64,000 nucleotides of DNA, from positions 11,070,501-11,134,500 of the forward strand of contig OX327690.1 in NCBI GenBank assembly GCA_946807835.1, written 5' to 3'. Below are positions 1,385 to 29,490 of the stretch, piece after piece. Position 1 is the first letter of the stretch, and each line of letters starts with the position of its first letter. The translations under genes and the position numbers were made by a program. Below the pieces are notes generated by a model. It was not told where the DNA came from, searched no databases, and saw only the letters and a program-made list of their open reading frames with translations. This stretch comes from Ailanthus altissimus. Taxonomy: Eukaryota; Streptophyta; Magnoliopsida; Sapindales; Simaroubaceae.

Positions 1385-1889
1385 GAAGGGTGGCAACTAA
1401 TTTGCATTGATTATCATTAACGCACCTAATTGATTGTCCAATTTAGAATTGATGTAGTCTGAATTAGCTTTCACTCAAAATATCAAAGTTGTATATACGT
1501 CTCTTATCTTTCTAAATTGAGTTTTCTCATATGTATTAGATATGTATTTCTATAGTTATGGACCAAATACTGATGACTATTTGGACGGGGACTAAACTGC
1601 AGATCAGTTTTGTTCTAGGCCATTTTCACCCTCTAAACGCTCGAATTTCAAATGCCTTGTGAGATACACTATGTTAGCCCATTGAGTCGTCTTTACCAGA
1701 TCAATAATCACTTCAATTAGATTCTTAGGTAGAACGTTATGCCTATTTTACCAAACCTACCACAAAATAATTAAAAGTTAATTATGTACAATATTGTAAA
1801 CATACTTAAGTTAGGGGGGTTAAAGACACTAGTAATCCAAAACAATGATGTAAAACTCTTATTAAATATGTAAATTCTAGTGTTCATCA
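1385..1889 (-). repeat. Gypsy G 3' LTR fragment
   Basis: About 500 bp are homologous to 33218-33652, including the shared blocks TTTGCATTGATTATCATTAA and GACCAAATACTGATGACTAT. On the minus strand the LTR begins TGATGAACACTAG at 1889, directly after the polypurine tract. The rest of the LTR lies left of the copia LTR insertion, outside the window. The insertion of L1 at 1384/1385 leaves GAAGG as the presumed target duplication on this side. Confidence 0.75.
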
Positions 1890-1902
1890 TACCCCCCAAC
1901 TA
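1890..1902 (-). other. Polypurine tract of gypsy G
   Basis: The minus strand reads TAGTTGGGGGGTA immediately before the TG of the 3' LTR. A purine run abutting the 3' LTR is the usual plus-strand priming site of gypsy elements. Confidence 0.7.
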
Positions 1903-3257
1903 GCTTATTACTAATCCCTAACAATTCAAGCATAAACAAAATTTGAACACTACCTAAGTATTTCAAACAAAATATCAGTTCAAGATCACAATCGCTATTA
2001 CGGTTATTTCAATCATAACTTCCAAAAAGCTACGTATGTGTGTGTGTGTGAATTAAGCCAAAACCTTCTTACAACAAACTACAACATATATAGCATTTAA
2101 ATTTTCTCCAAGTAAAAACCTCAACTCCATATCCTTACAGGTGAATAACTGTTTAACGGGTTAGGATTTCACTTATAAAGTTGAAAAATAGATAATCGCT
2201 CAAAAAAATGTTATATTTAAGGATAAATAGACAAACTAACATTAATCCAAAGATAGAAAAATTAATTATTTAGAGTCAAACCATTCTTGCTACATGCTAG
2301 CTTCAAGACTTTAATTATTTTATATAAATCTTACGAATAGAGAGTCCGGTGATAAAATTCCTTCATAATGACTTCTGTCTTCTAAAATTGAACGAAGACT
2401 TAGTTGAACTAAATTGATTTCTTTTCTTTTTTAAAAAAAACACTTATTATTTTGTTTTAAAAGACATAAGGAATCATTACAAAATAAGAGCAATTTCTCA
2501 CCATAATACTTCTCCACAAATTTTTTTTTTAATCATCCTTCAGCTAAGCAGCCAAATCATTCATCATCCTAAATAATGTCATTCCAAACAAAAATTAACT
2601 ATTTTAAAAAATCAATGAAAGTTCGTAAGCTGTTATCTCAAATCTCTCCGCTCACTCACAAAAGATGTGTGAGTTTAGAAAATAATATGTATACTTAAAT
2701 ATGGAAATTCTCTTGGCTATATATATTGAATCATCCATCTTACTACAAGGCTTAATATTGTGCTCAAGAAATAATTTTGAAAGTTATTCTTTAGTAACCT
2801 AGATAGAAAAATTAATTTAAACTAGACAATTTTGAGATCATACCTCGATAGTAAAGTAAATTTATTTATGCAAGAGTTACCAAAAACTTAAGCAACAAAC
2901 AAATATACATAAAATGCATTAGAAAAACCAATTAGAATGTGTTTCAAACGTTTAATAATGTACTTTTTACTCTACCATTCTAGAATTATAATACATCTTA
3001 AGAATGCATAAATGAACATTTTATTCATGCCATTCATGATGAATTTGTTTTTTAGAGAACAAAGTGATAGCAAAAAAAATTAACATTATATATCAACTAT
3101 CCCCCCCAACCAGATTGAGACATTGTCCTCAATGTCAAAATATAGAAAAAGTAGAGTATAAAAGATATCACTTGAAACATCTTTTATTGGAAATAAAATC
3201 TACAACAAAATAAAATAAGCCACACAAAATGCTTAAAAATATATAAAAGTAGATAGG
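1903..3257 (-). other. Gypsy G 3' noncoding region
   Basis: 1.35 kb without convincing coding. It aligns along its length with 9355-10690 of element A (for example the shared TTGAATCATCCATCTTA block and a CCCCCCAACCAGATTGAGAC / CCCCCCAAACCAGATGAAAC tract near 3103 and 10505). The C-rich tract is a purine run on the minus strand (GGTTTGGGGGG type) followed by an ATTGAGGACAATGT block. Such tracts are typical of the long 3' region of Athila/Tat elements and may be a second internal polypurine tract. Confidence 0.55.
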
Positions 3258-3914
3258 CTACAGACGAAGTGTCAAATATATTTTGCGTTTCTTTTCACTA
3301 TCATTAGTATACCAATCTATTTGACGCATTATTGAATCAGATAGAGGTATAAAAGCTTGTAATTCATCGAGTAACTAATCAACAGTTGAAACAGAAATAA
3401 GGATTTGTTGTGCTACAGATGAAATGAATTATTTTTCCACCACATAGTTAAGAAAAGAGAACAACTCATTATAAAAACTATCAACATTTAACAAACCAAT
3501 GAGTTTTTGGTGGATTTGTAATTGTGCCCATGAGACAATTTGAAAGACTTCTTCCAAAGTTTTGAAACATCCAGGTAGAGCTATGAAGGCATCAGCATTC
3601 CAAAGCATAAGAGATATTTGCTCATGCATTGATGATACCTGTAACTTATCCTCAATAATATTTCCTATAGTATTCCCAACAGCTAAAGCTTTCGGTATAA
3701 TACCCAAAACTTGACTGCCTTTATTTTGTGCAGCTGTTGCCACACATCCCATTAATCAACGACTACCTCCCACATATACTAAGTGAATTTTTTTCTTAGC
3801 TAACACCTTACCAAGTGTTTCTACTGCTTCTACAAACTCTCTAATTTTTTTAGGGCTAGATCTACAAAAAAAAAACATTTTTTTTGTGAATTTACGAGTT
3901 GATGTTCCTTTCAT
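3258..3914 (-). pseudogene. LOG-like phosphoribohydrolase carried by gypsy G
   Basis: A full-length LONELY GUY homologue. LOG enzymes release active cytokinin bases from riboside 5'-monophosphates in the cytosol. From an ATG at 3914 one frame runs 218 codons to a terminal stop at 3260-3258, close to the usual LOG length of about 215, but with three internal stops (3758-3756 TGA, 3431-3429 TAA, 3377-3375 TAG). Recognisable LOG blocks in order are LVYVGGS, LMG, VLGIIPKAL, SSMHE, ADAFIALPG, TLEE, WAQLQIH, LIGLLNV and a C-terminal FISSVAQQILIS. The hallmark PGGxGTxxE motif is altered to PGCFKTLEE, and the usual MHxRK is MHEQI, so the conserved Arg is absent. There is no intron, whereas host LOG genes have several. 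It sits between the integrase side and the 3' LTR of the element, collinear with the copy at 10691-11317. It is a captured, now dead copy. Confidence 0.8.
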
Positions 3915-4040
3915 TATTACACTCACCTTTTACCTTGAATAATTTTGAGTTTGTATGAATATGTAGAAATAATGCAATGTATTTATAGAGCCAAAAGATG
4001 TTGCTAAATCATATAGGTAGTTAATTGTAAATGGATAAGA

Positions 4041-4358
4041 TTAAGCTTTAAATGTAAAAATTTCAAAATCGACTATGAGTGGTTGGTTGTTGTTGGAGAA
4101 GATGTTTGAGGTTGAAATGAAACATTTAAAAGCAATCGCTACAATAAATATATACAAGTAGTTGTGATTATGGCTCATATCTTCCTCTGGTTTTACATCT
4201 AGAAACGGTTTAAATGCCCTCCATGGGACAGGGATAGACTTTTCATCCAAAGTTTTAATAAATTGGCAAATAGGGTCTTTTAAAGTCAGATTTTCTAGAC
4301 TGTACCGCCCATATTCCTTTAGGAATATGTCCTATAATTCACGAATTGCAATATGCAC
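4041..4358 (-). pseudogene. Unknown retrotransposon ORF of G, C-terminal part
   Basis: The minus-strand frame contains KSIPVPWRAFKPFLDVKPEE followed by SHNHNYLY. It is collinear with KPIPDP, FKPLLDVKPEE and SHNHNYM in element A (11560-11810). The upstream half of the ORF continues at 6418-6830; a 2-kb copia LTR with an ATATC target duplication separates the pieces. I do not recognise the family. It lies directly upstream of the LOG-like gene in both elements. Confidence 0.55.
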
Positions 4359-6417
4359 ATATCAGTCAAATCTTAGGCACGTGGGTGTATGCATATGCAA
4401 TTGTGTCTATTGCCTAACACAGCGGAAATATAAATTTTACAATAAACACAATAAATAAATATATTAATCACATTAATATATTTATATAGTTACAAATCTC
4501 GCCAAACATGTAACATTATACACGTATTTTTTCTGGAGTTCACATGGAGACCAACTCGCATACAATTCTAGTCACCAACTCGGTGGGCTTAGTTAGCTAG
4601 AACAGCAGCTCCATATTCAGCCTGGGATTAAATCTTAATCCCCAAAATGGCTAGGAGTGAATTTATATCCTTTTCTCCAAAATGATAAGAAATGGAGAAT
4701 TTGAAGCAATTCACAATTGCTCCAATTGGAAGCTTAGGAAAAATGAAACAATTTCATTTTCCCTACCCTTTTCCTTTTTTTTTTCTTTTTCTTTCTTTCT
4801 TTTCTCTTCTTCCTCTTTTCTTTCTTCTCTATTTCTCTCTTTCTCTCTCGGCCCAATTCGGCCAAATCTTGCTTCTTCTCTCTTTCTTTTTCTTTATTTA
4901 TATATATATATATAATATATAATATAAATATAATATAATATAATAATATATATTATATAATATAAAATGAAAGATATTTTGATTATTTAACTATTAAATA
5001 ATCAAACTGAGAAATGACCATTTTGCCCTTCATAAATTCACCCTTAGTAGGTCCTACTAAATTCCACACTTGGATAAACTCGACTGAGAGTTCACAATAC
5101 GCTACGTGTCATAATCCAATTAGTAAATAACAATTATTAACTAATTATTGTATTTAACACTTAAATACATACACGTACGCATTCCCGTAGAAGTGCTGAA
5201 TATTGCTGGATTAAACAATTTAATCTGGCATGTTGCCCTAATGCACAACGAGTACACTCCATATCGCAGGACTCCCTAGGTCCTACGCCTGATTCATCAA
5301 ATGGAACTATTCTATGAGCCCGTGAGCAATGCCCCACGCACATGTCACGGATATACAAATCAGCGCGTTGAACCATACAAGCTGAGGTTACAACGCATAC
5401 GTATAGTCTTTCCATCATGATATCCAGGATGTGCGGGGGGATATAGATTATCACCATCAAATCCCCATGTGCTTATCCATGTCCTATCTCTAGACTTGTA
5501 TCTCAATGAACAATATGCACAAACTCCTTTGCCATATTGTTCGACCCTGGCGGAACTCTTTCCTGGGATTATTGCTTGTGACCACAAGACTTTCTGAGAT
5601 ACAGTCTCGAAGCATCTGGATATCTAACTCCATATGGGAGCTAACGGATCCCATATTTGTACGCACCGGACTCTATAAACATCGGACCATACCCAGCGAC
5701 ACCCAGTAGTCACACCATGAAAGGTCTGTGATATGTATGGAACCCAAATATGGTGGATCACTTACAAGCCCACCATGGCACTCAGGTCAAAGGACCACGT
5801 ATACTAATCAACTCGAGAGGACCCTCTATTGACAGCTTACATTGAATGTCTATCGGAGGCCCTCGTGAGTCTGTCCCATATCCAGTCCTAACTGGATACC
5901 CATATGTCAATACGTGCTCCAAGCTCACAGTCGGTTAGGAACGACCGTCTATACCCGATAGGTACGACATATGCTGATCTATATATAAAGTATCCGCCGA
6001 CAGACCCGCATCGGTAGAAATAGATCAGGGACTATTATTCGAAAACATATTTGCGCAACTTACATTTTCTAGCACCCGATTGTAACTCTTGAAGCTATGC
6101 AGTTACTAGTATATTCCCAGGTCTATGTCCCATTACAGACACGGCTCCAACTCTTGGATCTGCTGGGTATTATAACCAACTAACACTTAGTTGTGCTAAC
6201 ATTTAGCAATTATATCTCTCAGCGTGGCTAACTATGAGCCCTTATCTAAACTCTTTAGATCTGATCCAAACTCCTTCTGATCTACAATGTCTGTAACGTT
6301 ACATGTATAATACCATATAGATGGGTATTAGCGATTTAATGGGAATGTACACTTGTATAAATACACAAGTATATGTACATTCAGGGATAACATGTAAGCA
6401 CTGACCCTAACAATATC
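4359..6417 (-). mobile_element. Solo copia-type LTR (L2) with ATATC TSD
   Basis: The LTR body is 4364-6412, flanked by perfect 5-bp duplications ATATC (4359-4363 and 6413-6417). On the minus strand it starts TGTTAGGGTC; the opposite end (AGTCAAATC on plus) no longer shows the expected TG. Comparison with the uninterrupted sequence in element A (about 11750-11780) confirms that the flanking sequence rejoins after removing the LTR and one ATATC. The body contains a CT-rich tract (4755-4880) followed by TA/TAATA repeats (4895-4970). There are no internal coding sequences, so this is a solo LTR. Confidence 0.85.
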
Positions 6418-6830
6418 CACTAAGATGCGTCTCAAGACTCCTTACTCAGGCCATCCTTAATGAATCTAATTTTATCTTCGCGATTTATAGATACCATTCT
6501 TAAAGTGCGACAACGTGTGTTGCAAGTCATACGTGCATACTTGTAACAAACACTTAATCTTTTTGCCCTTCGTTTTTTTGCAAAAGAGCTTTTATCTAGA
6601 AATTAATGAGTTTGAAAACTCACCTGCCAATTGAACTTTGGCTTCAATTAACCAACGTACATCAACATGTATATTCATAATCATTAATAACCTTAATCTT
6701 TCACATTTTGCTTGGTAACTTTTCTTTAAGGTATTTTGAGGCAATGAGGGAAAACATTTTTTTAAAATTCATTAGAATGTCATCAATTATTTTTTAGAAA
6801 TAGAAAGAAGAGAAGGTATCAGTAATTATG
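6418..6830 (-). pseudogene. Unknown retrotransposon ORF of G, N-terminal part
   Basis: Degraded minus-strand reading matching the element A ORF at 11901-12203. The shared words include FPSLPQNTL, CERLRLLM, DVRWLIEAKV (DIGWLIEAKV in A) and a downstream KIQFIKGG-like stretch. The resemblance in both elements indicates an element-encoded protein of about 215 residues. Its role is unknown to me. It resembles uncharacterised plant-transposon proteins that predictors sometimes flag downstream of gypsy pol genes. Confidence 0.5.
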
Positions 6831-6849: not shown

Positions 6850-8160
6850 TTGAATGTCACAGATTACCATTATCCGCCACTTAACCGGGGTGCAAAACAC
6901 AACTTTAACAAAAATACTAAATTAACTTACAAGTATGAAAAAAAATAAAGTTAGAAGACGAATGTATATATATGTAAATATGTAAACAAAGATTAATTGG
7001 TCTAATAACAAGGGTCAGCAGGGGCACAAATTCTTCATGAAAATCTTGGTTTTCTAGAAACAGCTTGAGTCTTTACCCATTTACCTAAAACACATTACCA
7101 TTTCTAGGATTTTCAATGTCAATTGTTCTATAAGGGTACACATGTTTCATAATAAAAGGGTCACTCCATCTTGATCTTAATTTTTCAGGAAATATGTGAA
7201 GTTGAGAATTATAAAGTAAAACCTTCTGACTAACATCAAATGTTTTTCTTTGATTTTTTTTATTATGAAAAGCTTTGATTTTAACTTTATGAATTTTTGA
7301 ATTCTCATATGCATCATTTATCAATTCTTCAAGTTCATTTATTTGTAATTTATGTATCTATCCGATAGAATCAAGATTTGCGTTGAAAAGTTTGATGGCC
7401 CAGTAGGCTTTATATTCAAGTTCCACAGGTAAGTGACAAGGTTTTCTATAAACTATCCTATAAGGATACATACCCAATGAAGTTTTAAAAGCAGTCTATA
7501 AGCCCAATGTGTATCATTAAGTCTTAAAGACCAATCTTTAAGATTTAGGTTTACAATTTTTTTAAAATTTATTTTATCTCCTTATTTGCTAATTCAACTT
7601 GTCCATTTGTCTAAGGATGATAAGATGTGGCAACTTTATGAGTAAATTCATATTTTTTCATTAATGTTTCAAATGTCCTATTACAAAAGTGCATACTCCC
7701 ATCATTTATAATGGCTCGAGGGATTCCAAATCGACTCAAGATATTTTCTTTCAAAAATTTCATGACTATTTTATGGTTATTATTTCGACATAGAATAGCC
7801 TCAATCCATTTTGAGACATAATCTATTGCAACTAAGATATACGTAAATCCAAATGATAGTGAAAATGGTCACATGAAATTTATCCCCTAACAATCAAAGA
7901 TTTAAATAATTAGAATGGGGTTCAAAGGCATATGTATCTTTAAAAATGGATTCTAATTTCTGACAATTTTCACACATTATACAAAATGCATGTGTATCTT
8001 TAAATAAAGTGGGCCAATAAAATTCACACTGCAAGATTTTTGTAGCTATTTTTCTTCATGAGAAATGCCCCCCACATACTTCAGAATGACAAAATTCAAT
8101 AACTCTACTTACCTTATTGTCGAGTATGCATCTTCGAAATATTTGGTCAGGACAATATTT
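6850..8160 (-). pseudogene. Gypsy G integrase (decayed)
   Basis: Integrase inserts the cDNA copy into the genome. Reading minus, the domain begins with a KYCPDQIFRRC-like linker and an HHCC zinc region (CHSEVCGGHF). It continues through GINFMWPFS (first catalytic Asp region mutated to Asn), WIEAI, IINDGSMHFCN (second Asp), ATSYHP and NGQVE (Glu), and a C-terminal KLRSRWSDPFIMKHVYPY segment at 7085-7324 that resembles the GPY/F module. Stops and small indels interrupt the frame. The upstream RNase H is missing because element A and an associated deletion occupy that position. Confidence 0.7.
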
Positions 8161-8189
8161 GAAGAGATAATATTTGGTCAGGACAATAT
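8139..8189. repeat. 20-bp direct repeat at a deletion junction
   Basis: ATATTTGGTCAGGACAATAT occurs at 8139-8158 and again at 8170-8189, exactly where gypsy G integrase joins the truncated 3' LTR of element A. The LTR partner sequence also has GACAATATATC, giving microhomology. Confidence 0.75.
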
Positions 8190-9339
8190 ATCATTTTGAC
8201 AATATTGCAGTAAAAGATCAACTTGAATATCAAACAATTATTTTCTTTCATGTTATCCAAGATCGACAATATATTAATTGACAATATTGCAGTAAAATAT
8301 TAACATGTAAAATAATGTAACCAATAACAATTATAATTTAACACGAATCACATAAAGAAAGCATGATTGAAAATATATAAAACATGAAAATTATAACCTT
8401 TGTATTATAGAAGATAAAATAGATAAAAGTTTAGGTACAAACAAACTTACAAACATTTGTAGCTCTTAACAAGGAATCAAAGTATAGAAGTAAATTTACT
8501 ACACATAAAAGTTCATCTCTTAACTTTGCCAAGAACTCTAGCCTAACTTACAATTCATTTTAAAGAGAAGAAAATATGAGAGATTTTTCTAATGATGAAA
8601 ACATCATAGGAGTGTCCTTATATAGGCAATGAATGAAAATATGTTAAGTGTGACTTCAATCTTCAATAATTTAGGCCAACCACTCGTTCACCCACTTTCA
8701 GCACCTTTTTAATAATGTAAATAATTGACGTAACTATTTTGGCCAACATGAAATTTGTAGCATCTTGTCTCTTCTTTCCACAGGCACCAGATTCATACAA
8801 ATTGAATAAGTATCTAATGAGATATGGGCAAAATACCAAAGATATGTCAGATTTCGGCCAACAACCCTTTTACCCACTTGCAATACAATTTGGTCCATGA
8901 TAACGACTGATTTGGACTTTACCATCATAAGAGTTGTTAATAATTGAGTCAGTATTTCACAGCTTTAAGAATTATACCAATTGGGTATGTATTTTATGAA
9001 ATACGGTCCAAATACGTGAGGTGGGTCAAGCTGAGCGAAAGTTGTAATCCAATTCTGTTGTATCCTAATTTTGGCCCATAAAATGTTAGATTTGGCTTTT
9101 CAACTATTCTTTATGTTTGTGTAAGATTGATTATGTTACTCAATGCTCAATAATTTCTTCATTTTGATTTCTACATTGAGAGTTGTGTCTATTTTACCTA
9201 AACCTATACAAATAACATTCATTAATCACAATTTAAGGAGAACACTTTATTTCAAGTTAAAAATACAAAAAAGTTAAAAATAGTGACATTAAATGGTGAC
9301 TGAATCTCTTAATAAATATATATTTTCATGTGTTTATCA
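8182..9339 (-). repeat. Element A 3' LTR (truncated)
   Basis: Homologous to 18505-19673. On the minus strand it starts TGATAAACACATG at 9339. About 400 bp of the U5 side are missing: similarity stops inside the internal repeat near 8182 and joins gypsy G integrase through the direct repeat at 8139-8189. A TATA-type sequence (CTTATATAGG on plus) lies near 8618. Confidence 0.8.
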
Positions 9340-10690: not shown

Positions 10691-11317
10691 TTACAAACGA
10701 AGTGTCAGATCCAATTTTTGCTTGTTAAGGACCACTGACCAATTGGTCCGAATTATTGCTAGGTCAGGTTTATAGGTAACTGCCTGTAATTTGTCAATCA
10801 ATTCATCCACATTGGTAGCAGAAACGAGGATCTATTGCGCCAAATATGAAATACAATTCTATTCCACAGCTTGATCAAGAAAACAGAGTAAGCAATTAAA
10901 ATAGTTATTAACATTCAACAAACCTATGAGTTTTTGATGGATATTCAATTGGGTCCAATAGGCAATTTGAAAATTTTCTTCCAAGGTACCAAAACCACCT
11001 GGTAAAACAATAAAAGCGTTTGCATAGTAAAACATTCTAGCTATATGTTCATGCATGGATGAGACTCATAATTCTTCTCCTATTATTTTCCCAGTCAGGT
11101 TTTCCGCATCTAAAACTGTAGGAATAATACCTAAAAGTTAACTTCCTCCTAAATGTGCAGCTGTTGACACACACCCTATTAACCCAAGGCTACCCCCTCC
11201 ATAAATCAAATGGATTTTTCTAGATTGTTTCCAGCTTCTACAAATACTTTATTTTTTCCAGGACTAAATACACATATATTTCAGAATTGTTGAACTGAGG
11301 TTTCCTCTATATCTACA
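10691..11317 (-). pseudogene. LOG-like phosphoribohydrolase carried by element A
   Basis: Second LOG homologue, ending at a TAA at 10693-10691. Canonical LOG words are better preserved than in the G copy: YGGGSLGL (near 11181-11205), [24 protein letters not shown] with an intact PGGxGTxxE motif, [16 protein letters not shown] and a C-terminal ISYLAQ/ILVSATNVDEL. Four in-frame stops are visible (11140-11138, 11068-11066, 10861-10859, 10834-10832), and the N-terminus is shortened or shifted, with no clear ATG matching 3914 in the other copy. As in G, the usual MHxRK is MHEHI, so the conserved Arg is missing. The gene is intronless and lies between the unknown ORF and the 3' LTR. It is a pseudogene now. 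Confidence 0.8.
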
Positions 11318-11559
11318 CTCACCTTTATCTCAATATATGAAAATAAAAAAAATGAGGTGTTGTATTTATAGAGTACCAAATGATAATGACAATTTTGGTA
11401 ACCAGACAGTTTATCAGAAGAGATTTAAAAATAAAACACAAAAGTTTAAACATAAGGACCCATATGCATTATTTAACCAAAAGATTTACATTTAAGACAT
11501 CTATATGAGTAGCCCTACTATTCATAAAAAAATATTAAAATTAAAACATATGTATTTAC

Positions 11560-12203
11560 ATGTAGTTGTGATTGTGGCTCACATATTCCTCTGGTTTTAC
11601 ATCCAGTAATGGCTTAAATGTCCTTTATGGGTCGGGGATAGGCTTCCCATCCAATGTTCTTATAAATTGGCAAACAGGGTCTTTTAGAGTCAGATTCCCG
11701 AGACTATACCGTTGATGTTTATTTTTGAATTTATTCCATAAATCGACAAGTTCATATTGCACAAGCCCACAGGGATGCATCTCAAGAGTCAATAGAATAT
11801 CATCCAAAAACTCCTTACTCAGTCCACCCTTAATGAACTGAATTTTGTCTTCTCGATTTCTAGATGCAAATCCTAAAGAACGATAACTCCGGTTACAATT
11901 TCATCGAGCACATTTATGACAGACTTGTAACCTTTTTGCTCGTTGGCTTTTGGCATAAAAGCTTCTTCCAAGACCATGCATAAAAGAAACAAAATTATTT
12001 ACAGACTCACTAGATAATCGAACCTTGGCTTCGATTAACCAACCAATATCCACAGGGATATTACTCAACATCAATAGCCTTAGTCTTTCACACCGTGCTT
12101 TGTAAATCTTAAGTAGAGTATTTTGAGGCAATGAAGGAAAGCGTGTTTTTAAGGTTGCCAAGAATGCGATCCATTTTGAAATAAAGAAAAAAGATGAATA
12201 CAC
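11560..12203 (-). pseudogene. Unknown ORF between integrase and LOG (element A)
   Basis: Two adjacent frames (11901-12203 and 11625-11807), separated by stops, form one protein of roughly 210 residues. It contains LKTRFPSLPQNTLLKIYKAR, VDIGWLIEAKVRL, then FLDDILLTLEMHP, LKDPVCQFIRTLDGKPIPDP and a tail FKPLLDVKPEE/SHNHNYM. No catalytic or binding motif is obvious. The same protein occurs, split by a solo LTR, in gypsy G. Conservation in two elements argues that it was a genuine element gene. Alternatives are an accessory or envelope-position ORF, or a second captured host fragment. Confidence 0.5.
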
Positions 12204-12249: not shown

Positions 12250-13560
12250 TCACGGAGTACCGTATCCGCCACTTGACCGAAAAATAAAATCACAGTAAAA
12301 ATAAAAAAAGAAGAAAATAAAGTAAAATAAAATATGAAAGAAAATAAAAGCAAAAAAAAAGTCAAAAGATAAAATATACACAAAATATAAAATATTGTAC
12401 AGATAGATTGAACCTGATCAAGTATGATAGACAGGATTCACAAAAAGGATCTCGTCTAGGTACATAGAGTGGTCTACCTTTTTCACATAGCTTTTCAGTC
12501 GCTGTCCATTCACTTTAAAAGTTCACCCATCAGTGGGGTCCTTGATTTTGACAGCACCATTAGAAAAAATGTGCCTTACCATAAATGGACCAGTCCATCG
12601 AGATCTCAACTTTTCAAGGTGTAAATGCAATCGAGAATCATAAAGATAGACTCGTTGATTTGGCTCGAAGTGTTTTCTTGAGATCTATTTGTCATGAGCT
12701 GCTTTTATTTTAGCTTTGTAAATTCTGGAGTTGTCATATGCATCATTTTGTAGCTCTTTTATTTCTGACAATTGTAACTTTCTTTGAAGACCTGCAACAC
12801 TTTAATCAAAGTTAAGGGCTTTGACAGCCTAATAAGTTTTATGCTCTAGCTCAACAGGTAAATGGCAAGCTTTCCCATAAACAAGCCAGCATAGAGACAT
12901 TCCTAAGATGGTTTTGTATGCAGTGCGATATGCCCATAATTCATCAGAAAGGCATAGAGACAAATCTTTGAGATTCGGGTTAACCGTCTTTTTCAAAATT
13001 TGTTTAACTCTCTATTTGCTTGCTCGGCTTGTCCATTTATCTATGGATGGTATGCAGTGGAAACTTTGTGAAGAACACCATACCTACACATCAAAGCTTT
13101 AAAATAATGGTTACAAAAATGTATTCTTTGGTCACTAATGATGACACGTAGCGTACCTTACCTAAATAACACATTTGCTTTTAAGAATTGTACCACAGTT
13201 GTATTATAATTGCTATGTCAAGCTATAGCCTCCACCTATTGTAATACATAGTCAACAGCTAGAAAGATGTAAAGGTAGCCAAAAGATGAGGGAAAAGGAC
13301 CCATAAAATCGATACCCCAACAATCAAATATCTCAATAACAAGAATAGGGTTAAAAGGCATCATGTCTTAGAGATAAAGTACCTACCTTTTGACATCTTT
13401 CACAGGAATGATAAAAATTATTAGTGTCTTTGAACAAAGTGGACCACAAGCAGTGTTTGAAACGATATAGATCATCCCAATAAAAATTACGTACCTCAAC
13501 CAAAAACCTACGCTTATCTTGTGCACTCCAGTTAGATGAAAGTTCACCGCAAACAAAATA
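12250..13560 (-). pseudogene. Element A integrase (decayed)
   Basis: Minus-strand frames read through an HHCC-type region (FYHSCERCQKVG near 13400), [14 protein letters not shown] (catalytic Asp, about 13310), VISDQRIHFCN-like (second Asp, about 13120), STAYHP and NGQAE (Glu region), and a C-terminal segment at 12500-12760 with LKSRWTGPF-type spacing. Several stops interrupt it. It follows RNase H without an internal chromodomain that I can see, as expected for Athila/Tat rather than chromoviruses. Confidence 0.65.
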
Positions 13561-13578
13561 ATTTACAATATGTGTGTA

Positions 13579-14049
13579 CTAAGGTATTTGGCTTATAGTG
13601 CAAAGATATTCATCAGGGAAATCATCTCGAATGGGTGGCAAATCAGTGGAGTCAGTGAACTCAAGACAGGATAAATGATCAGCAACAACATTTTCAACGC
13701 CCTTCATATCTTTGATGGCTAGATCAAATTCTTGCAAAAGAAGAATCCACTGAATTAAACAAGATTTAGCACTCTTCTTAGAAAAAAGGTACTTAAGGGC
13801 TGCGTGGTCAGTAAAAATAATAATAGGTGAACCAATCAAATAAGAATGGAATTTTTCTAAGGCAAAAACAACAGCTAGTAGTTCGTTTTCAGTAGTAATG
13901 TAATTTATATGAGCATTATTCAAAGTTCTACTAGCATAATAAACAACAAATGGTTTTTCCTCCCTTCGTTGCCCAAGAACTGCTCCTACAACACAATTAC
14001 CTGCATCATACATAATTTCAAATGGGAGGTTCCAATCCAGTGATTGCAT
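13579..14049 (-). pseudogene. Element A RNase H
   Basis: 156-residue open frame. The four acidic positions of gypsy RNase H are all recognisable: Asp in [15 protein letters not shown], Glu in [16 protein letters not shown], Asp in [11 protein letters not shown] and Asp in VADHLSCLE. The conserved [14 protein letters not shown] block is also present. RNase H degrades the RNA of RNA:DNA hybrids during reverse transcription. The frame starts inside the domain ([10 protein letters not shown]), continuing from RT after a small disruption at 14050-14082. This is the best-preserved coding block in the window. Confidence 0.8.
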
Positions 14050-14082
14050 GATAGGAGCGGTGGTGAGTTTGGCAATGATTTT

Positions 14083-15161
14083 TCAGAATACCTCCTTACA
14101 CTCTTGTGTCCATGTAAATTCTGCATCTTTTAGCAAAAGGTTACACAATTGTCTAGATATGGCAGAAAACTTTGGTATAAACCTCTTGTAAAAGTCAGCA
14201 TGTCCAAGAAAAGATCGGACATCTTTTACCGTTTTTGGTGTAGGTAATTTAGAGATTAATTCAATTTTGGCCTTATCATACTTTATCCCTTTTTTCAAAT
14301 ACAATGTGGCCCAAAACGATTCCTAAAGATACCATGAAATGACATTTCTCCCAATTTTGCACGAGTCCTTTTCTTCACACCTACTCAAACTAGCTTTCAA
14401 GTTAAGTAGACATAAATCAAAAGAATTACTAAAAGAAGTCAAATCATCCATAAAATCTTCCATGCATTTTTCAACCATATCAGAGAAAATACTCAACATA
14501 CAAGTTGAAAAGTAGCTGGTGCATTACATAATCCAAATGGCATTCTACGAAAAGTATACGTACCAAAAGGGCATGTAAAAGTGGTTTTTTCTTGATCTTC
14601 TATAACTATCTCAATCTGGTCATATCCTGAATACCCATCAAGAAAGAAATAAAAAGGATATCTAGCTACATGTTTTAAAATTTGGTCGATAAAAGGCAAT
14701 GAAAAATAGTCTTTCCTAGTGGCTGTGTTTAATTTTCTATAGTCAATGCACATTCGCCAACCACTTACTACCCTAGTAGGAATAGGTATCCCATTCTCAT
14801 TTTCTACAACAGTAACCTCAGATTTCTTAGGAACTACTTGAATTGGACTTACCCATTAAGTATCAAAAATTGGGTAGATTATACCCACATCTAATAGTTT
14901 TAAAACCTCTTTCTCCACTACTTCTTTCATTGTTGGGTTAAGTCTTCTTTGTGGGTCCCTACAGAGTTGGGCACCTTTCTCTAAATGAATTCTATGAGAG
15001 CATATCAATGGACAAATACCTTTAATATCTGCTATAGTCCAATTGAGTGTAGACTTATGTTCTTTTAACAATTTAATCAAATTTTCCTCTTGTTCAGCAC
15101 TAAGTTCAGAAGTAATGATGATAGGAAAGGTATCACCTGGTCCTAAGAATACGTGTTTCAA
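14083..15161 (-). pseudogene. Element A reverse transcriptase
   Basis: The N-terminal part is 15161-14856, with a stop at its end; this is followed by [31 protein letters not shown] (14753 onward), motif A FFLDGYSGYDQI, motif B PFGLCNAPATFQ, and the polymerase box FMDDLTSF near 14440-14460. The thumb/connection KAKIELISKLPTPKTVKDVR and SFLGHADFYKRFIP follows (14304-14083). FMDD in place of YVDD/YIDD is usual for Athila/Tat gypsy elements. Stops and frameshifts at about 14493 and 14310 make it nonfunctional. Confidence 0.8.
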
Positions 15162-15436
15162 ACCTTTAGGCAGTGGAGAAAGCTCAACCTATGGTGTCTC
15201 AAGGATTGATGGTTTCGGTTTCTCCCTCTCTCATGACAACTCTTTAAAGCGTGGCTGCCAAAATCGAGTACCTTTATCCTGTGAGTCAAAAATATTAAAC
15301 ATATCAATTATTTCATCAAGATAATACAATTCTTCAAAACACAATCAAAGAGGTTTTTTAAAGAATCAGAGCTATGATTTTTATAAGCTTGCTCCGCTAC
15401 AAGTTTGTCTATCATATATGAATGATATCATTCATC

Positions 15437-15805
15437 TTATTCTCGTGGTTGCTTGCCAATATGGAAAATGTTCACCTTAAGAGTCATATTCCCAAATGAA
15501 AATTTTATTAGACCATTTCTGTAATTAATAAGAGCGTTAGCAGTGGCAAGAAAAGGTCTCTCCAAAATAAGAGGGATTTTAGACTCCATTTTAACCATAG
15601 AATGAGTATCTAAAATAAGAAAATCAACAAGGTAGTAAAATTTATCAATTTGAAACAAAACACCTTTTATTATTCCCCATCGTTTCTTGATTAATCGGTC
15701 AGCTAATTATAGGACTACAAATGTAGGTTTAATCTCACTAAGTCCCAATTACAAGTTAATAGAATAAGTCATTAAATTTACACTTGCTCCTAAGTCCAAC
15801 AAAGC
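15437..15805 (-). pseudogene. Element A aspartic protease
   Basis: The active-site segment ALLDLGASVNLMTYS (minus, about 15765-15805) gives D-L-G-A in place of D-[ST]-G-A, which is common in Athila/Tat proteases. Downstream (15658-15437) are FYYLVDFLILD and IPLILERPFLATANALINY, the flap/C-terminal ILGRPFLAT block with Gly to Glu. The protease matures the gag-pol polyprotein. The segment between the pieces contains stops, and 15162-15436 (protease-RT linker) is unreadable. Confidence 0.65.
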
Positions 15806-16049
15806 TTGACCAAAATCATGTGTCCTAATTTAGCAGGAGATTGTGAGACATCTTGGGTCTTTTTACTTGGGTGGTGTCTTTTGTTCAATCACTGCACTTA
15901 TCTGTTCTGCTAAAAATGTAGTTTTCTTTACATGGTGTTTTCTTTTGCTAGTGCATAGATCCTTGATGACTTTGGCATAAGTTAGAACCTGTTTAATCAA
16001 ATGCAACAAGGAAAGATTAATCTTAACTTGTTTCAAATGTTCTAAAATC

Positions 16050-16960
16050 TCACCTTGAATTTTTTATTTTTTTCCAACGGGTCGAAGAGCTTGAGGAAAA
16101 AGCATTGACTTCTTCCACTATGGCCTCTTTTTCAAGGGAGGCATCTTTATTACTTGTAGATATGTTAGTTGTAAAAGTAGGCTCACTCACAATCTTACCA
16201 CTTCGAGTAGTAATGGCATTGACTTCTTTGAGATTTTGTGTATTTGAAGTAAAAGCTTGTGCCATGAATTATCCTTTTGGATTGGATTGAGGTTGAGATG
16301 AAAACTTACCTCGCTCTTATACAGTTAAGGCACTGGTCAACTTAGTGATTTGACTCTTGATTTCTTTGTTTTCATCTACCACTTGTGCAAGAATTGTTTT
16401 AAATTTTTTTATTAATTTTACTTTGTGCCTCCATATATGTTTGTAATGTATCCTCTAAAGGACTCATGACTTGTCGTCTATTATATTGAGGTAAACCATA
16501 AGACTTAGGTGCTTGTTGTTCTTGCTTCCAATGGTTGTTGGCTTGTTGGTTAGATTTCCAAAAAAAGTTTGGGTAGTTTCTCTAGTTAGGATTATAGGTT
16601 TCAGAGTATGGTGAATAAGGCTTCTTATACATCCTTAAGGCATTACATTATTCCTCATATATCCCTTTCATCTTACTATAAGTGGGATAATCCTGAGCTA
16701 AGTGTTCCACTCCTCCACAGATAAAATATCCCTTTCAAGGCCTCTAATTTCCTAGTTAAGACCTCTAACTGGGCTTTAAGACTATCCTCTTCCCTAAGAT
16801 GAAAAATTCCACTAGGTCGTGACCTATTTGTGCTTTCAGTAGCGCTAGGTCAAATCCATGTATGGGCTTTTTTGACTAAGTCATTAAGGAATTCTATGGC
16901 TTCCTTAGGATCTTTATGAAGAAACTCCCCATTACACATCATCGCAACAAATTAGTGCTC
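16050..16960 (-). pseudogene. Element A gag C-terminus and knuckle region
   Basis: A decayed CCHC knuckle (FICGGVEHLAQDYP, about 16690-16730, with the last Cys changed to Tyr) is followed by a low-complexity linker. Then comes the conserved Athila/Tat gag-protease junction word VNAITTRSGKIVSEP (16265-16050). The stretch carries many stops. Confidence 0.55.
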
Positions 16961-17610
16961 TCAAATTGTGAGTCCCTCATAAAAATAGCTAACCAAGCGC
17001 CAATTTTCATACCCATGGTGAGGGCACAGATTTAGCAACTCTTTAAACCTTTTCCAAGCTTGATATAAGGTTTCATTGTCTTTTTGGCAGAAGGAAGAAA
17101 TTTGTCTTTTCAGACCATTAGTTTTATGTTGTAAGAAGTATTTATTGAAAAATATTTTGGTCATTTCTACCCAAGTTCCTATAGACCTCGGCCTTAAAGA
17201 GTATAGCCAACTTTTTGCTTTGTCTTTCAAAGAAAAAGGGAAAAATTTAAGCCTAACAATGTCTATGGCTTCAGGTTGGCTATGAAAGGTGGCAATTACC
17301 TCTTTAAATTTCCTAACATGTACATAAGGATTTTCACTATCTGGACCATGAAAAGTGGGCAGAAGTTAAAATCTGAATGTGGTGTGTTAGGTGGAAATAT
17401 AATGCATGATGGTGTGGTTATGCGAGTAGGATGCAAATAATCTTTTAGAATTCTAACGAGGTTATCCTCGTGTTGGCTCATTGTGTTGGAATTACAAGAT
17501 GAATTAGATGGTGAATTCTCTTCCCTTACAAATTGTGGTGGTGGTTCTAGTTCTACTTCACTCATAAATCTTCCTTGTTTGTCTCTAAGTTGATGCATAC
17601 ATCCTAACAC
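16961..17610 (-). pseudogene. Element A gag (capsid domain)
   Basis: N-terminal frame 17610-17296 (DYLHPTRITTPSCIIFPPNT), then frame 17230-16961 with the retrotransposon gag signature: KDKAKSWLYSLRPRSIGTW, MTKIFFNKYF, QISSFCQKDNETLYQAWKRF, LLNLCPHHGYENWRLVSYFY and EGLT. It is shifted near 17290. Gag forms the virus-like particle. The capsid block matches gypsy G gag at 21600-21965. Confidence 0.7.
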
Positions 17611-18114: not shown

Positions 18115-19673
18115 TGTTTACGCTCAAAATATAACGTGGCTATCGCAGTATAGATTGAGGTATCGATCCCTCAAGGAAGCTTTTGGCAAAATAAGTTAGT
18201 GAAGTAAAATATTAAAGTAGTAGCAAAGGAGAAAATTAATTAATTGGTTTAAGTGGACAAGATAGAATTGTCTATGAATTGAGAAAAATGTTTTATGATG
18301 ATGCAAGTAAGGCTTCGAGAATAAAAATTTTGCTTTATAAATCTACTCTATGATTCAATATTTATAACTCAATTAAAAGTTTCACATCCCAAACAATCAA
18401 TCAAAAGATATGTAAAATATAGCACATTTAATAACACATGTATTTGATATGATTCAACTCTTTGCAAACATGAACACAAACCATGTTCATTTATACAAGT
18501 TATCTAAGATCGACAATATATCATTTTGACAATATTGCAGTAAAAGATCAACTTGAATATCAAACAATTATTATCTTCACATGTTATCCAAGATCGACAA
18601 TATATCGATTGACAATATTGCAGTAAAAGATTAACATGTAAAACAATGTAATCAATAATAATTATAATTCAACAAGAATCACATAAAGAAAGCATGACTA
18701 AAAATATATAAAACATGAGAATTATAACCTTTGGATTATAGAAGATAAAATAAATAAGAGTTTAGGCACAAAAAAACTTACAAACATTTGTAGTTCTAGA
18801 CAAAGAAACAAAGTATAGAAGTAGATTTACTACACATAAAAGTTCATCTCTTAGCCTTGCCAAGAACTCTAACCTAGCTTACAATGCATGTTAAAGAGAT
18901 GAAAATATGAGAGAATTTTCTAATGTTGAAAAAGTCATAAGAGTGTCCTTATATAGGCAATGAATGGAAATATGTTAAGTGTGACTTCAATCTTCAATCA
19001 TTTAGGCCAACCACTCGCTCACCCACTTGCAACACCTTTTTGATAATGTAAATGACCGATGTAGTCTTTTTAGCTAAAATGTAAGTTGTAGCATCTTGTC
19101 TCTTCTTTCCATAGGCACTAGGTTTATACAAATGGGATGAGTATCCAATGAGATATGGGTACAATGCCAAAGATATGTCAGATTTTGGCCAACAACCTTT
19201 TTACCCACTTGTAATACAATTTGGTCTATGACAACAGCTGATTTGGACTTTACCATCAACATAAGTGTTGTTAATAATTGAGTCAGTATTTATAGCTTTA
19301 ATAATTATACCAATTAGGTATGTATTTTTTGAAATATGATCCAAATACACGAGGTGGGTCAAGCTGAGCAGAAGTTGTAATCCAATTCTGTTGTATCCCA
19401 ATTTTGGCCCATAAAATGTTGGATTTGGCTTTTCAACTGTTCTTCAAGTTTATGAAAGATTGAGTCATGTTACTCTAAGTTCAAGAATTTCTTCATTTCA
19501 ATTTCTACATTGAGAGTTACGTCTATTTTATCTAAACCTATGCAAATAACATTCATTAATCACAATTTAAGGAGAACACTTTATTTCAAGTTAAAAATAC
19601 AAAAATGCTAAAATTAGTGACATTAAATGGTGACTGAATCTCTTAATAAATATTTATTTTCATGTGTTCATCA
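18115..19673 (-). repeat. Element A 5' LTR
   Basis: 1559 bp; on plus it reads TGTTTACGCTC ... GTGTTCATCA, that is TGATGAACAC ... GAGCGTAAACA on minus, with perfect TG/CA ends. It matches the solo LTR at 38227-39782 (1556 bp, opposite orientation) and the truncated 3' LTR. A TATA-type sequence lies at about 18948-18958. A tandem duplication with the word GACAATATTGCAGTAAAAGA occurs at 18511-18640. Confidence 0.85.
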
Positions 19674-20361
19674 GGGGGCAAGTTAGCAATGAGTTTGACT
19701 TTTGCCTTATCCACTCCAATTCCTTTAGAAGACATTACATGTCCCAAAATAATTCTAGAAGTAACCATGTAATGACATTTTTTCCAATTCAACACAATGC
19801 CCTTTTCCTCACATATTTTTTAGACATATTCTAAGTTTTCAAAACAATTTCCAAACATGGTTAAATCATCCATGAAAACTTCTAAATAATGTTCAACCAT
19901 ATCACTAAAAATGCTTAACATATATCTTTGAAATGTTGTTGGGGCATTGCAAAGTCCAAATGGCATTCTTCTAAAAGCAAAAGTCCCAAAAGAGCATATG
20001 AATGTAATCTTTTCTTAGTCCTTTAGTGCTATAGAAATTTGATAATAGCCAGAATAACGTCTAGAAAGTAATAGTATGGATGTTCTGCTACTCTTTCTAA
20101 AATTTGGTCAAGGAATGGTAAGGAAAAATGATATTTTCTAGTGGTAGAGTTCAACTTCCTATAATATATGCACATCCTCCAACTAGATGAGACTCGAGTT
20201 GGTATTAACTCACCTTTGTTATTTTCAATGACTGTGATTTCATATATTTTTGGTACTACTTGAATAGGACTTACCCACTTACTATCCTCCTCCTTGTGTG
20301 GTTGCTTACACATATTGAAAAAATTAAGTTCAAGTGTTATGTTTTCAAATGAAAGCTTCAT
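19674..20361 (-). pseudogene. Gypsy G reverse transcriptase (3' part cut by element A)
   Basis: The minus frame has WVSPIQVVPKIYEITVIEN, MCIYYRKLNSTTRKYHFSLP and FLDQILERVAEHPYYYFLD (20361-20029). A frameshift follows, then PFGLCNAPTTFQ-like text and an FMDDLTMFGNCFE polymerase box near 19865-19880. The reading DKAKVKLIANLPP ends exactly where the LTR of element A begins, so the insertion interrupted the RT thumb/RNase H boundary. It is paralogous to 14083-15161. Confidence 0.75.
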
Positions 20362-20364
20362 TAC

Positions 20365-20660
20365 TCAATTCTTCCAATTAATCAAAGCGTTAGAAGTTAG
20401 ACGATCCAAAATAACAAGTATCGGATTACATCCTTTAACATGTTCTATTTTTAAGACAATAAAATCCACAGGATATATGAATTTATCAACTTGAACTAAA
20501 ACATCTTCAATTATCCCTCTTGGCACTTTTATTGATCTATCGGCAAGCAAAAGAGTTACAGAAGTTGGTTTTAACTCACCAAGATTGAGCTATTGATCAA
20601 CTGAATATGGCAGTAAATTCACACTAGCACCAAGATCAAGTAAGGCTTATTCAATTTTAT
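20365..20660 (-). pseudogene. Gypsy G aspartic protease
   Basis: Active-site segment LDLGASVNLLPYSVD (about 20610-20640), then LNLGELKPTSVTLLLADRS and IIEDVLVQVDKFIYPVDFIV (20550-20365). One stop follows the active-site segment. The D-L-G-A active site matches element A. Confidence 0.65.
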
Positions 20661-20825
20661 GACTTTCAATATTACAAGAAATTGTAGGACAACCAGAGTC
20701 TTTATATGTCAATGCATTATTATTTTGAAGAATGGTACTTGTTCAGCTAAAAATAATTTCTTTTTCACATTCAATTTTCTTTTTATTGTACATAAATCCT
20801 TTAAAAATTTTGCATAAGAGGGAAC

Positions 20826-21965
20826 CTATTTAATAACATCCAATAAAGTAATATTAACCTTTACCTGTTTGAAGATTTTAAAAATTTTAGGATTATGTTT
20901 CATCTTCTTAGCATTATGTAATGCATAAAGAAATGGGGATGGAGATGAGGGTTTGGTGTTTTCTTTACAAAGTGTAGGTTTAACGCTTTTGTTACCCTTA
21001 GAGATTGATTCATCGTTCTTACAAGGTCCATGAATGTATTTTTTAATAATCTTACCATTCTTAAGAGTGATAACCACTTTAACTTGATTCATGTGTTGGC
21101 TTGCTGAACTACATGCATTTGAGTTATATTGTCTTTTAGGGTTTGGTTGTGGTTGAGAAGAAAATTTTTTTTTCTCATAAATGTTCAGTGCCGATGCAAA
21201 TTTAGTAAGAGTATCTTTCAAATCAGTAAATATTTGAGCATTTTGAGAATTAATAGACTCTTGCTTTTCAATGAATGCATGCAAAGTTTCTTTAAGATTT
21301 TTCTTAGGGTGCAGGACATATGGTGCATAACCTTGATGGTTTTAAGAATTTTGGTGTGGTTGAAAAGACAGTTGTGAAGCCTGTGCTTGAGTGTCATTCC
21401 TTCAACTAAAATTCGGGTGTTTTCTTCAACCAAGATTATAGTTTTGTGAATATGGGTTATTGTTTAACCACTTGAACATGTTTAGAACATTGGCTTATTC
21501 ATGGAGACATTCTCTAAATACAGGCAAAGTTAGGCAATCATTAGTAGAGTGATCATGAGTTTTACATATGTGACACATAATTTCTTGAACAGATTTTAAT
21601 TGGCCACTCTTTTTCATTTCTAAGGTTTCAACTTTTCTAGCTAGGAATGCCAATTTCGCTTAAAGGTCTGGATCTTTCCTAAGATGATAAATACCCCAAC
21701 TAGATAAAGTGGTTTTAGTTTTGCAAGGTGCCTCATAGGTACCAGCAGTGTCCCAATTTTAAGTATTTTTTACTAGTAAGTCTAAATAGTTCATTGCCTC
21801 TTCTGGGTCTTTATCTTCAAATGTTCTATTACACATCATTTCTACCATTTGCCTAACTTGTGGTGTTAAGCCCTCATAGAAATTTGAGACTAGTCTCTAA
21901 GTTTTAAAGCCATGATGGGGACAGGTATTAAGTAATTATTTATACCTTTTCCAACATTGGTAAAG
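20826..21965 (-). pseudogene. Gypsy G gag, C-terminal two thirds
   Basis: Next to the Tekay insertion the frame continues the capsid domain (YQCWKRYK, LLNTCPHHGFKT, RLVSNFYEGLTPQVRQMVEM). An intact CCHC knuckle CHICKTHDHSTNDC lies at about 21540-21585. Then a Lys/Ser/Pro-rich linker at 21284-20826 includes the junction word VVITLKNGKII. The upstream gag lies beyond the Tekay element at 28895-29490; the halves meet at the TAAAG duplication. Confidence 0.7.
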
Positions 21966-28894: not shown

Positions 28895-28899
28895 TAAAG

Positions 28900-29490
28900 G
28901 GTCTCTCCTAGTTTTTGGGCAAAAATGGTAATTTATCTTTTGAAAGAATTTTTTCTATGGAGAGAAAAAAAATTTTTTAAGAATTGTTGTTGCATCTCAT
29001 CCCATAAAGAAATGGATACTGGCCTAAGGTTTTATAGTCATGTTTTTGCTTTATATTTTAAAGAAAAAAAAAACTTAAGTCAAATTGTGTTCATGCTACA
29101 ATTTTTGTCATTATACGTGTTACACACTTCTTCAAATTCTCTTAAATGTAGATAAGGGTTCTCTGCATCTAAACCATGAAAAGTGAGTAAAATTTGGATA
29201 ATACCCGGCTTAACATTAAAATGTGTTGCATTTTGAGGAAAAACTAAGCAAGATAGTGCACCGGTTCGTGAAAGGTTCATGTAGTCTCTAAGTGTCCTAG
29301 GTCGATTACGGTTATTATGTTGGAACTGATTATCCCCTGGGTCTATGAGTCCCTCAATTTGATTATCGGTCATGGTGTTAATTAGTGAAGAATGAGAAGA
29401 TAAAGGAGAATCAAATAAATTATCAAAGGAAGTCCCAAAATTACCTTTCACCAAACGATGAGAATTAGGATCTCGAAACCAACCACTCAT
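28900..29490 (-). pseudogene. Gypsy G gag, N-terminal part
   Basis: The open frame (29724-29080) includes a plausible start MSGWFRDPNSHRLVKG at about 29490. It continues with RPRTLRDYMNLSRTGALSCL, VFPQNATHFNVKPGIIQIL, TFHGLDAENPYLHLREFEEV and CNTYNDKNCSMNTI, the highly characteristic N-terminal gag of Athila/Tat elements. A frameshift near 29080 is followed by the capsid start, cut by the Tekay insertion at 28899. The frame upstream of the Met is leader sequence. Confidence 0.8.

What the first reader, a model, noticed from the sequence alone, without database searches (positions are those of the whole stretch)
3258..3914. Intronless, nearly full-length LOG cytokinin-activating gene carried as cargo by gypsy element G
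Seen: one frame of 218 codons from an ATG with LOG landmarks in order, at LOG-like total length, lying between the integrase side and the polypurine tract of the element. Known: host plant LOG genes have introns, while retrotransposon cargo copied through RNA does not. Inference: a spliced LOG transcript was captured by the retrotransposon and moved with it. I do not know of a described plant gypsy lineage that carries LOG.
Basis: partly seen in the sequence, partly recalled or inferred. Interest (0 to 1): 0.9.

Follow-up and report, generated by a model that had tools for sequence, protein, structure and literature searches.

The report
Athila retrotransposons carrying plant hormone gene
In a plant genome that is very likely the tree of heaven, LTR retrotransposons carry an intronless gene of the LOG family (enzymes that activate the plant hormone cytokinin) whose active-site motif is intact in more than a thousand places; its sequence bears the mark of selection between element lineages, and its tail ends in a motif that would likely bind the host's TOPLESS repressor, so the elements probably use it to steer their host.

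Summary
The LOG-like sequence at 3258-3914 is real: minus strand, a whole LOG protein without introns, on the 3' side of integrase in a gypsy element. This copy is dead (three in-frame stops, broken catalytic motif). A second, diverged gypsy element nested in the first carries the same pair, NABP-like ORF then LOG. Assembly figures match Ailanthus altissima, where LOG cargo comes in three lineages: A and C (with an ORF related to betaflexivirus nucleic-acid-binding proteins) and B (a non-autonomous LTR element with an orphan ORF). Intact catalytic-motif patterns match 1,258 places, the host LOG motif 9. Between lineages dN/dS is 0.14-0.33; in B, private changes look near-neutral and shared ones constrained. 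Element LOGs share a 13-bp TATA block 63-76 nt before the start and a basic C-terminal tail ending in an EAR motif (LxLxL or DLNxxP; 101 of 120 relatives). LOG in LTR-retrotransposons was already in print (Citrus, poplar), so the cargo is known. I found no report of the EAR tail, internal core promoter, NABP partner, B family or selection pattern (open-licence library only). Function, expression and TOPLESS binding are predicted, not shown.

The parts
3258..3914 (-). LOG copy of element 1: full-length, intronless, decayed (3 internal stops, PGCFKTLEE)
3978..3990 (-). CTCTATAAATACA block, predicted core promoter, 76 nt before the LOG ATG
3181..3188 (-). AATAAAAG, polyadenylation-like signal after the LOG stop
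   Evidence: also in the A and B copies shown; not seen in the C copies or element 2 stretch shown
1889..1901 (-). probable true polypurine tract of element 1, beside its 3' LTR
4224..4361 (-). C-terminal part of the NABP-like ORF of element 1, cut off by an insertion
6357..6765 (-). N-terminal and middle part of the NABP-like ORF of element 1, frameshifted
7025..8169 (-). integrase end of pol, element 1, frameshifted
19658..21968 (-). further gag-pol of element 1, beyond the nested element 2
28894..29520 (-). gag part, assigned to element 1
32305..33562 (-). 5' LTR part of element 1 (84% to a type A LTR stretch; 86% over 350 columns to the 3' piece 1384-1731)
10694..11310 (-). LOG copy of element 2 (C-like; frameshifted, start codon ATA, early stop)
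11361..11373 (-). CTCTATAAATACA block of element 2
11628..12164 (-). NABP-like ORF of element 2
12421..17475 (-). gag-pol of element 2, frameshifted
   Evidence: RNase H piece 13579-14046 PF17917 1.3e-31
8182..9339 (-). 3' LTR of element 2
   Evidence: 90.3% over 1163 columns to 18512-19673
18512..19673 (-). 5' LTR of element 2

Best explanation
The LOG at 3258-3914 is a dead copy of a gene that gypsy elements, probably of the Athila lineage, carry as one of their own and that likely serves the element as a host-manipulation enzyme. Shown: LOG follows an NABP-like ORF or, in family B, an orphan ORF; it is intronless, keeps the catalytic motif in intact copies, is conserved between lineages, and lies behind an invariant TATA-like block. 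Predicted: a LOG fold with a loose tail. Inferred: a spliced host LOG mRNA was captured long ago; the internal promoter gives the gene its own transcript; the product frees active cytokinin from its nucleotide and, through the basic tail ending in an EAR motif, enters the nucleus and binds TOPLESS-type corepressors. This would keep the cell dividing or meristem-like and loosen repression, helping new copies reach the germ line. Family B lacks gag-pol in the copies examined and shares the cassette from the TATA block to the element's 3' motif, so it probably took it from an Athila-like element and uses another element's enzymes. After insertion each copy decays, as both copies in the window have done.
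For: Linkage in both directions: 36 of 37, 20 of 20, 18 of 20. Counts: 843 exact matches of the A/B catalytic-motif pattern and 415 of the C pattern, reversed controls 0, against 9 host-motif matches, control 0; a motif match is not proof of a whole gene. The 150 scored PF03641 places (best of 4,943 first-look candidates) have no stop inside the match. Selection: mean dN/dS A-B 0.33, A-C 0.14, B-C 0.24; within B 0.27; in B, private variants 15 synonymous:34 nonsynonymous versus shared 18:8, Fisher p=0.0017. Constraint of type A against element 2: LOG 0.24, NABP 0.25, the two gag-pol ORFs 0.17 and 0.145. Fold: pLDDT 83.6, best PDB match At2g37210 at E=1.7e-24 and 55% identity, tail residues 196-217 under pLDDT 50. 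Tail: LxLxL or DLNx(x)P in the last 12 residues of 101 of 120 listed relatives, against 15 of 23,824 other 12-residue windows in them; type B ends IDLNLTP, and PMC9956375 (passage) gives LDLNLTP as the EAR motif of ZCT1 and ZCT2; a host LOG (L051) ends LGYTPDCDVSR. TATA: CTCTATAAATACA is the longest block invariant in A, B, C and both window elements, in upstreams 39-47% identical for the three pairs measured; CTATAAATA before the start in 3 of 4 A and 50 of 52 B loci, and 61 nt before the start in 16 of 17 C loci. Recent activity: LTR identity 100% over 2,092 bp in one B element; 99.66% over the 295 and 1,175 bp held of two A elements.
Against: No expression, enzyme, localisation or TOPLESS-binding data; EAR, basic tail and TATA are motif readings. 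Within A the ratio is 1.39 on very few differences; among 14 C rows it is 0.56 (about 0.29 in the 8 intact ones) and C shared variants are 6 synonymous:9 nonsynonymous, not clearly constrained. A-C dS of 1.65 is near saturation. The 20 B and 20 NABP copies came from the scored, best part of their lists. Of 18 NABP-linked LOGs only 8 are intact. Two of 20 NABP copies had no LOG in the stretch held. The polyA-like signal was not seen in C.
Confidence: 0.5

Rival explanations
1. The LOG is a working enzyme for the element but not through cytokinin: it would clear or salvage purine nucleotides or blunt a nucleotide immune signal.
For: AMP-bound LOG and LOG-like structures are among the fold matches; substrate-specificity residues were not tested; catalytic motif kept.
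Against: The nearest solved relatives are plant LOG-type proteins, 55% identical. Nothing in my data points to another substrate.
Confidence: 0.2
2. The enzyme part is secondary; the conserved function is the EAR tail, which would titrate TOPLESS and so loosen silencing or defence, with LOG as a carrier.
For: Tail in 101 of 120 relatives, with both EAR classes present. Pathogen effectors use EAR motifs against TOPLESS (PMC8126959 abstract; PMC9956375 passages).
Against: PGGFGTLEE and MHER are kept in the A, B and C rows shown; PGG, GT and LEE columns are invariant and the arginine nearly so in the 20 LOGs. A mere carrier would not need them. The motif is missing in some of the 120 (14 noPGG marks in the listing).
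Confidence: 0.12
3. Passive passenger: a captured gene amplified by hitch-hiking, without use.
For: Many copies decay, including both in the window; private changes are near-neutral.
Against: Between-lineage dN/dS 0.14-0.33, shared-variant constraint in B, conserved tail and TATA block; relatives in several plant genera.
Confidence: 0.08
4. Host genes: the intact intronless LOGs are host retrogenes that elements happen to neighbour.
For: Relatives in poplar are named LOGL10 in public annotation.
Against: Linkage of 36 of 37, 20 of 20 and 18 of 20 to element ORFs; copies by the hundred; near-neutral private change.
Confidence: 0.02

Closest known systems
LOG/YgdH domain in LTR-retrotransposon consensuses of Citrus sinensis, C. 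clementina and Populus trichocarpa (PMC9289625 passages; it cites Steinbauerova et al. 2011, not held and not read; I recall its abstract as naming two Athila-like elements with an extra ORF like LOGL4)
   Same: A LOG-family extra domain inside plant LTR-retrotransposons.
   Different: The passages I saw say nothing of tail, promoter, NABP partner, non-autonomous carrier, copy counts or selection.
Plant LOG-type proteins (At2g37210, At5g11950)
   Same: Fold and catalytic motif.
   Different: Element LOGs have no introns, form a clade apart from 4 host rows, read PGGFGTLEE in A, B and C where these plant proteins have PGGYGT, and have a basic EAR tail.
AlkB-type RNA demethylase ORF in Phalaenopsis gypsy elements (PMC9289625 abstract)
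   Same: An enzyme fixed as extra ORF of a gypsy lineage.
   Different: Acts on RNA; no hormone link.
Betaflexivirus nucleic-acid-binding proteins / silencing suppressors (PF05515, PF01623)
   Same: 26 and 27 of 30 element NABP rows match at E up to 0.01.
   Different: Sits in a retroelement; the match is weak (29.7 bits for type A) and the direction of transfer is open.
EAR-motif effectors of plant pathogens (Jsi1, abstract; HaRxL21 and XopD, passages)
   Same: EAR motif; TOPLESS as target for Jsi1 and HaRxL21.
   Different: Here on a predicted enzyme encoded by a genomic element, and TOPLESS binding is untested.

Membership tests
LOG phosphoribohydrolase | PF03641 domain and LOG fold | tested here: met
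   Type A PF03641 1.2e-40; best fold match plant LOG-type protein, E=1.7e-24. Window copy 8.5e-26 in one piece.
LOG phosphoribohydrolase | PGGxGTxxE motif and the active-site arginine (roles recalled) | tested here: met
   Met in the A, B, C rows shown; PGG, GT, LEE invariant and R98 nearly so in 20 rows. Not met in the window copy.
LOG phosphoribohydrolase | activity on cytokinin nucleotides | not testable with these tools
   Needs an enzyme assay.
Ty3/gypsy, Athila lineage | gypsy order: RT, RNase H, then integrase | tested here: met
   gag, protease, RT, RNase H, integrase in L012.
Ty3/gypsy, Athila lineage | no additional RNase H (aRH marks Tat, PMC6317226 passage) | tested here: inconclusive
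   No second RNase H family, by Pfam alone and in one element.
Ty3/gypsy, Athila lineage | placement in an RT tree | not tested
   No reference RT set was fetched; 'Athila-like' rests on the recalled look of gag and the row above.
Betaflexivirus NABP | PF05515 or PF01623 match over cut-off | tested here: met
   PF05515 29.7-31 bits, cut-off 23; PF01623 below its cut-off for type A (17.8 and 18.5 of 20.9).
Betaflexivirus NABP | same fold | tested here: inconclusive
   Model pLDDT 59; best BFVD match E=0.054, none under 0.001, though most named high-ranking matches are suppressors or nucleic-acid-binding proteins of such viruses.
EAR-motif repressor | LxLxL or DLNx(x)P sequence | tested here: met
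   101 of 120 relatives in the last 12 residues.
EAR-motif repressor | TOPLESS binding and repression | not testable with these tools
   Needs a binding assay.

The most novel reading that the evidence does not exclude
Athila elements carry a virus-style two-gene module for ruling the host cell: a protein related to RNA-virus silencing suppressors, and a nuclear cytokinin-activating enzyme with a TOPLESS-binding tail driven by its own promoter inside the element. A gag-less element family has stolen the hormone gene, which shows that the gene pays by itself.
Probability: 0.3. Interest if true: 0.93.

Novelty: new variant of a known kind. Interest (0 to 1): 0.78.

Why it matters
It would be a case of genomic parasites that encode a plant hormone enzyme and are selected to keep it, as pathogens do. 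It makes testable why some elements spread: do they change the cell they live in? It also warns annotators: relatives named LOGL10 in poplar fall inside the element-type LOG clade, so LOG gene counts in woody plants may be inflated by transposon cargo. The NABP partner raises the question whether RNA viruses took such a protein from retroelements or the reverse.

Tried and rejected
Plus-strand reading: many stops, rejected. Finding host LOGs by protein search failed twice because element copies filled the 150 scored places; a DNA pattern for the host motif worked. Scans of viral contigs with LOG and NABP confirmed no relative. The type B ORF has no Pfam family at E up to 1 and one database hit, 98% alike, so its role is unknown. 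The NABP fold was too poor to carry weight. A first dN/dS run used copies chosen by LOG score (within B 0.18) and was replaced by samples chosen by other ORFs; there 4 of the 18 NABP-linked copies were left out for frameshift or truncation. In the tree four fused predictions were dropped and P0002 was cut to its first 225 residues; 59 of its 119 inner branches have support under 80. Gene order in other species was not verified; equal contig lengths (8723; 4511; 21981555) for LOG and NABP hits only hint at it. An earlier count said the AATAAAAG signal is also in element 2; the stretch shown does not bear that out. Literature on LOG in LTR elements: searches; on carlavirus-type proteins in gypsy elements: search 32 (0 papers); on LOG with EAR motif: search 93 (18 papers, 15 listed; listing only seen, no title about a LOG protein with an EAR tail). 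Steinbauerova et al. 2011 was not read; what I say of its abstract is recalled.

Full report
WHAT IS IN THE WINDOW. The finding is on the minus strand. From ATG at 3914 to the stop ending at 3258 runs a LOG protein of 218 codons without introns, with three internal stops and a ruined catalytic motif. Its longest open piece matches plant LOG-type structures at 1e-25 and PF03641 at 8.5e-26. With proteins of young relatives as queries, the window holds two gypsy elements with LOG. Element 1: LOG 3261-4013, NABP remnants 4224-4361 and 6357-6765, pol 7025-8169, then, beyond an insertion, 19658-21968 and 28894-29520. Element 2, nested in it: LOG 10694-11325, NABP 11628-12164, gag-pol 12421-17475, LTRs 8182-9339 and 18512-19673 (90.3%). 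LTR pieces of element 1 are 86% alike over 350 columns. Both are old and broken.

WHERE IT COMES FROM. The genome has 939,062,666 bases in 37 contigs. The published tree-of-heaven assembly has 939,218,608 bp in 37 scaffolds, and its chromosomes 3, 5, 7 and 8 have 35.13, 34.17, 33.54 and 31.7 Mb (passages of PMC10472066), which fit contigs C3, C5, C7 and C8 (35,128,234; 34,168,734; 33,535,000; 31,699,893). The totals differ by about 0.16 Mb. I take the window to be Ailanthus altissima chromosome 8; this is a match of figures, not a label.

HOW MANY, AND LINKED TO WHAT. PF03641 gave 4,943 first-look candidates; the 150 scored pass the cut-off with no stop inside the match. A 35-base pattern over the catalytic motif has 843 exact matches for A/B, and one for C has 415, reversed controls 0; they count motifs, not proven whole genes. 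A pattern for the host motif DMHQRKAEM has 9. Type A (L012, L014/L015): gag-pol, NABP-like ORF of 182 aa, LOG of 217 aa. Type B (L009, L010, L016, L018): no gag-pol match at 1e-5, a 397-aa orphan ORF, LOG of 217 aa, between LTRs of at least 2.09 kb in L009, partly in tandem arrays. Type C: NABP then LOG of 215 aa; its gag-pol was seen only in the C-like element 2. Of 37 distinct LOG loci cut out by rank, 36 are linked as expected. Chosen by the B ORF, 20 of 20 have LOG at about the same spacing, 18 without a stop; chosen along the NABP list, 18 of 20 have LOG, 17 of lineage C (8 intact) and 1 of lineage A, frameshifted. In a host gene, L051, five LOG exons were read and the last, with the usual LOG tail.

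SELECTION. Counts by Nei-Gojobori: A-B dN 0.156, dS 0.467; A-C 0.238 and 1.65; B-C 0.270 and 1.14; within B 0.0106 and 0.0388. In 20 B copies, private variants are 15 synonymous to 34 nonsynonymous (0.70 per site) and shared ones 18 to 8 (0.14), p=0.0017. In B the gene is thus kept while the element multiplies and drifts once inserted. Weaker or against: 14 C rows give 0.56 (8 intact ones 0.0072 over 0.0252), C shared variants are 6 to 9, and the 4 A rows give 1.39 on few changes; the window copy against A gives 0.52, as expected of a decayed copy.

THE GENE'S OWN SIGNALS. Upstream of LOG, sequences of A, B, C, element 1 and element 2 align poorly (39-47% for the three pairs measured), but hold an invariant 13-base block CTCTATAAATACA, 63 to 76 nt before the start, the longest invariant block; GGTGAG just before the start is the next. 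CTATAAATA is there in 3 of 4 A and 50 of 52 B loci and, 61 nt before the start, in 16 of 17 C loci (L074 lacks it). AATAAAAG after the stop is seen in the A and B copies shown and element 1, not in the C copies shown nor element 2. B shares sequence with A from the TATA block past the stop to the TATTTTG-CATTGAG motif, so the cassette seems to have passed between element families as a unit; the direction, A-like to B, is inferred.

THE TAIL. Element LOGs end in a basic stretch and LxLxL or DLNxxP: 101 of 120 listed relatives hold the motif in the last 12 residues, against 15 of 23,824 other windows; with a basic pair required before it, a slightly different pattern gave 99 of 120. The 19 without are one host protein, predictions that look fused, truncated or extended, and four with a changed position. 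EAR is defined as LxLxL or DLNx(x)P (PMC9956375 abstract, passages). In the model the tail is disordered (residues 196-217 under pLDDT 50) while the body is a LOG fold. TOPLESS binding is predicted, not shown.

RELATIVES. The best 120 of 7,786 hits include Xanthoceras, Reevesia, Diplodiscus, Populus and Paulownia proteins. In a quick tree of 122 rows, 118 element-type rows stand apart from 4 host rows with SH-aLRT 100; A and B group together (99) and C elsewhere; half of the inner branches are weak. Rows from other species were not checked for element flanks. NABP relatives (481 hits, 120 listed) come from Xanthoceras, Acer, Populus and Rhamnella among others; 27 of 30 match Carla_C4 and 26 of 30 Viral_NABP at E up to 0.01. 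Cysteine-rich proteins of mandariviruses were reported as pathogenicity factors, one a silencing suppressor (PMC12172455 abstract); their relation to this ORF was not tested.

KNOWN OR NEW. LOG/YgdH in LTR-retrotransposons is in print for Citrus and poplar (PMC9289625 passages). Reviews of extra ORFs seen in part (PMC11963269 parts 1-2 of 5; PMC7264820 part 1 of 3) do not mention LOG there; PMC6317226 has no 'LOG' or 'cytokinin' in its main text by a word search. I found no paper joining LOG, EAR tail, internal promoter or carlavirus-type NABP with gypsy elements in searches, over an open-licence library only and mostly from listings. Hence: new variant of a known kind.

Noticed in passing
window 217-1197, 5194-6155, 31036-32016, 59092-60027: A repeat of about 1 kb occurs four times, 73-76% alike; one copy lies in the insertion that cuts the NABP ORF of element 1. 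Not identified.
   Followed up: no
window 3922-3927 and 11318-11323: A splice-donor-like GGTGAG begins 13 nt before the LOG start in A, C, element 1 and element 2 (GGTGAGC or GGTGGGC in B); type A also has a TTGTTGCAG acceptor-like stretch after the stop. The LOG might be a retained intron of the genomic RNA.
   Followed up: partly
L010/L011, L016/L017, L018/L019: Type B elements occur in head-to-tail arrays with period about 6.55-6.62 kb.
   Followed up: partly
L010:4161-5351: 397-aa orphan ORF of type B: 104 scored copies, 97-100% alike, no Pfam family and a single database relative, 98% alike and so likely the same species.
   Followed up: yes
P0027, P0054, P0109: Poplar proteins annotated as LOGL10 fall in the element-type LOG clade and bear the EAR tail, so they are likely transposon cargo.
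   Followed up: partly
window 24624-25060 / 27390-27826 and 22938-23154 / 27179-27395: Further direct repeats of 91.8% and 93.1% identity, perhaps the ends of another insertion.
   Followed up: no
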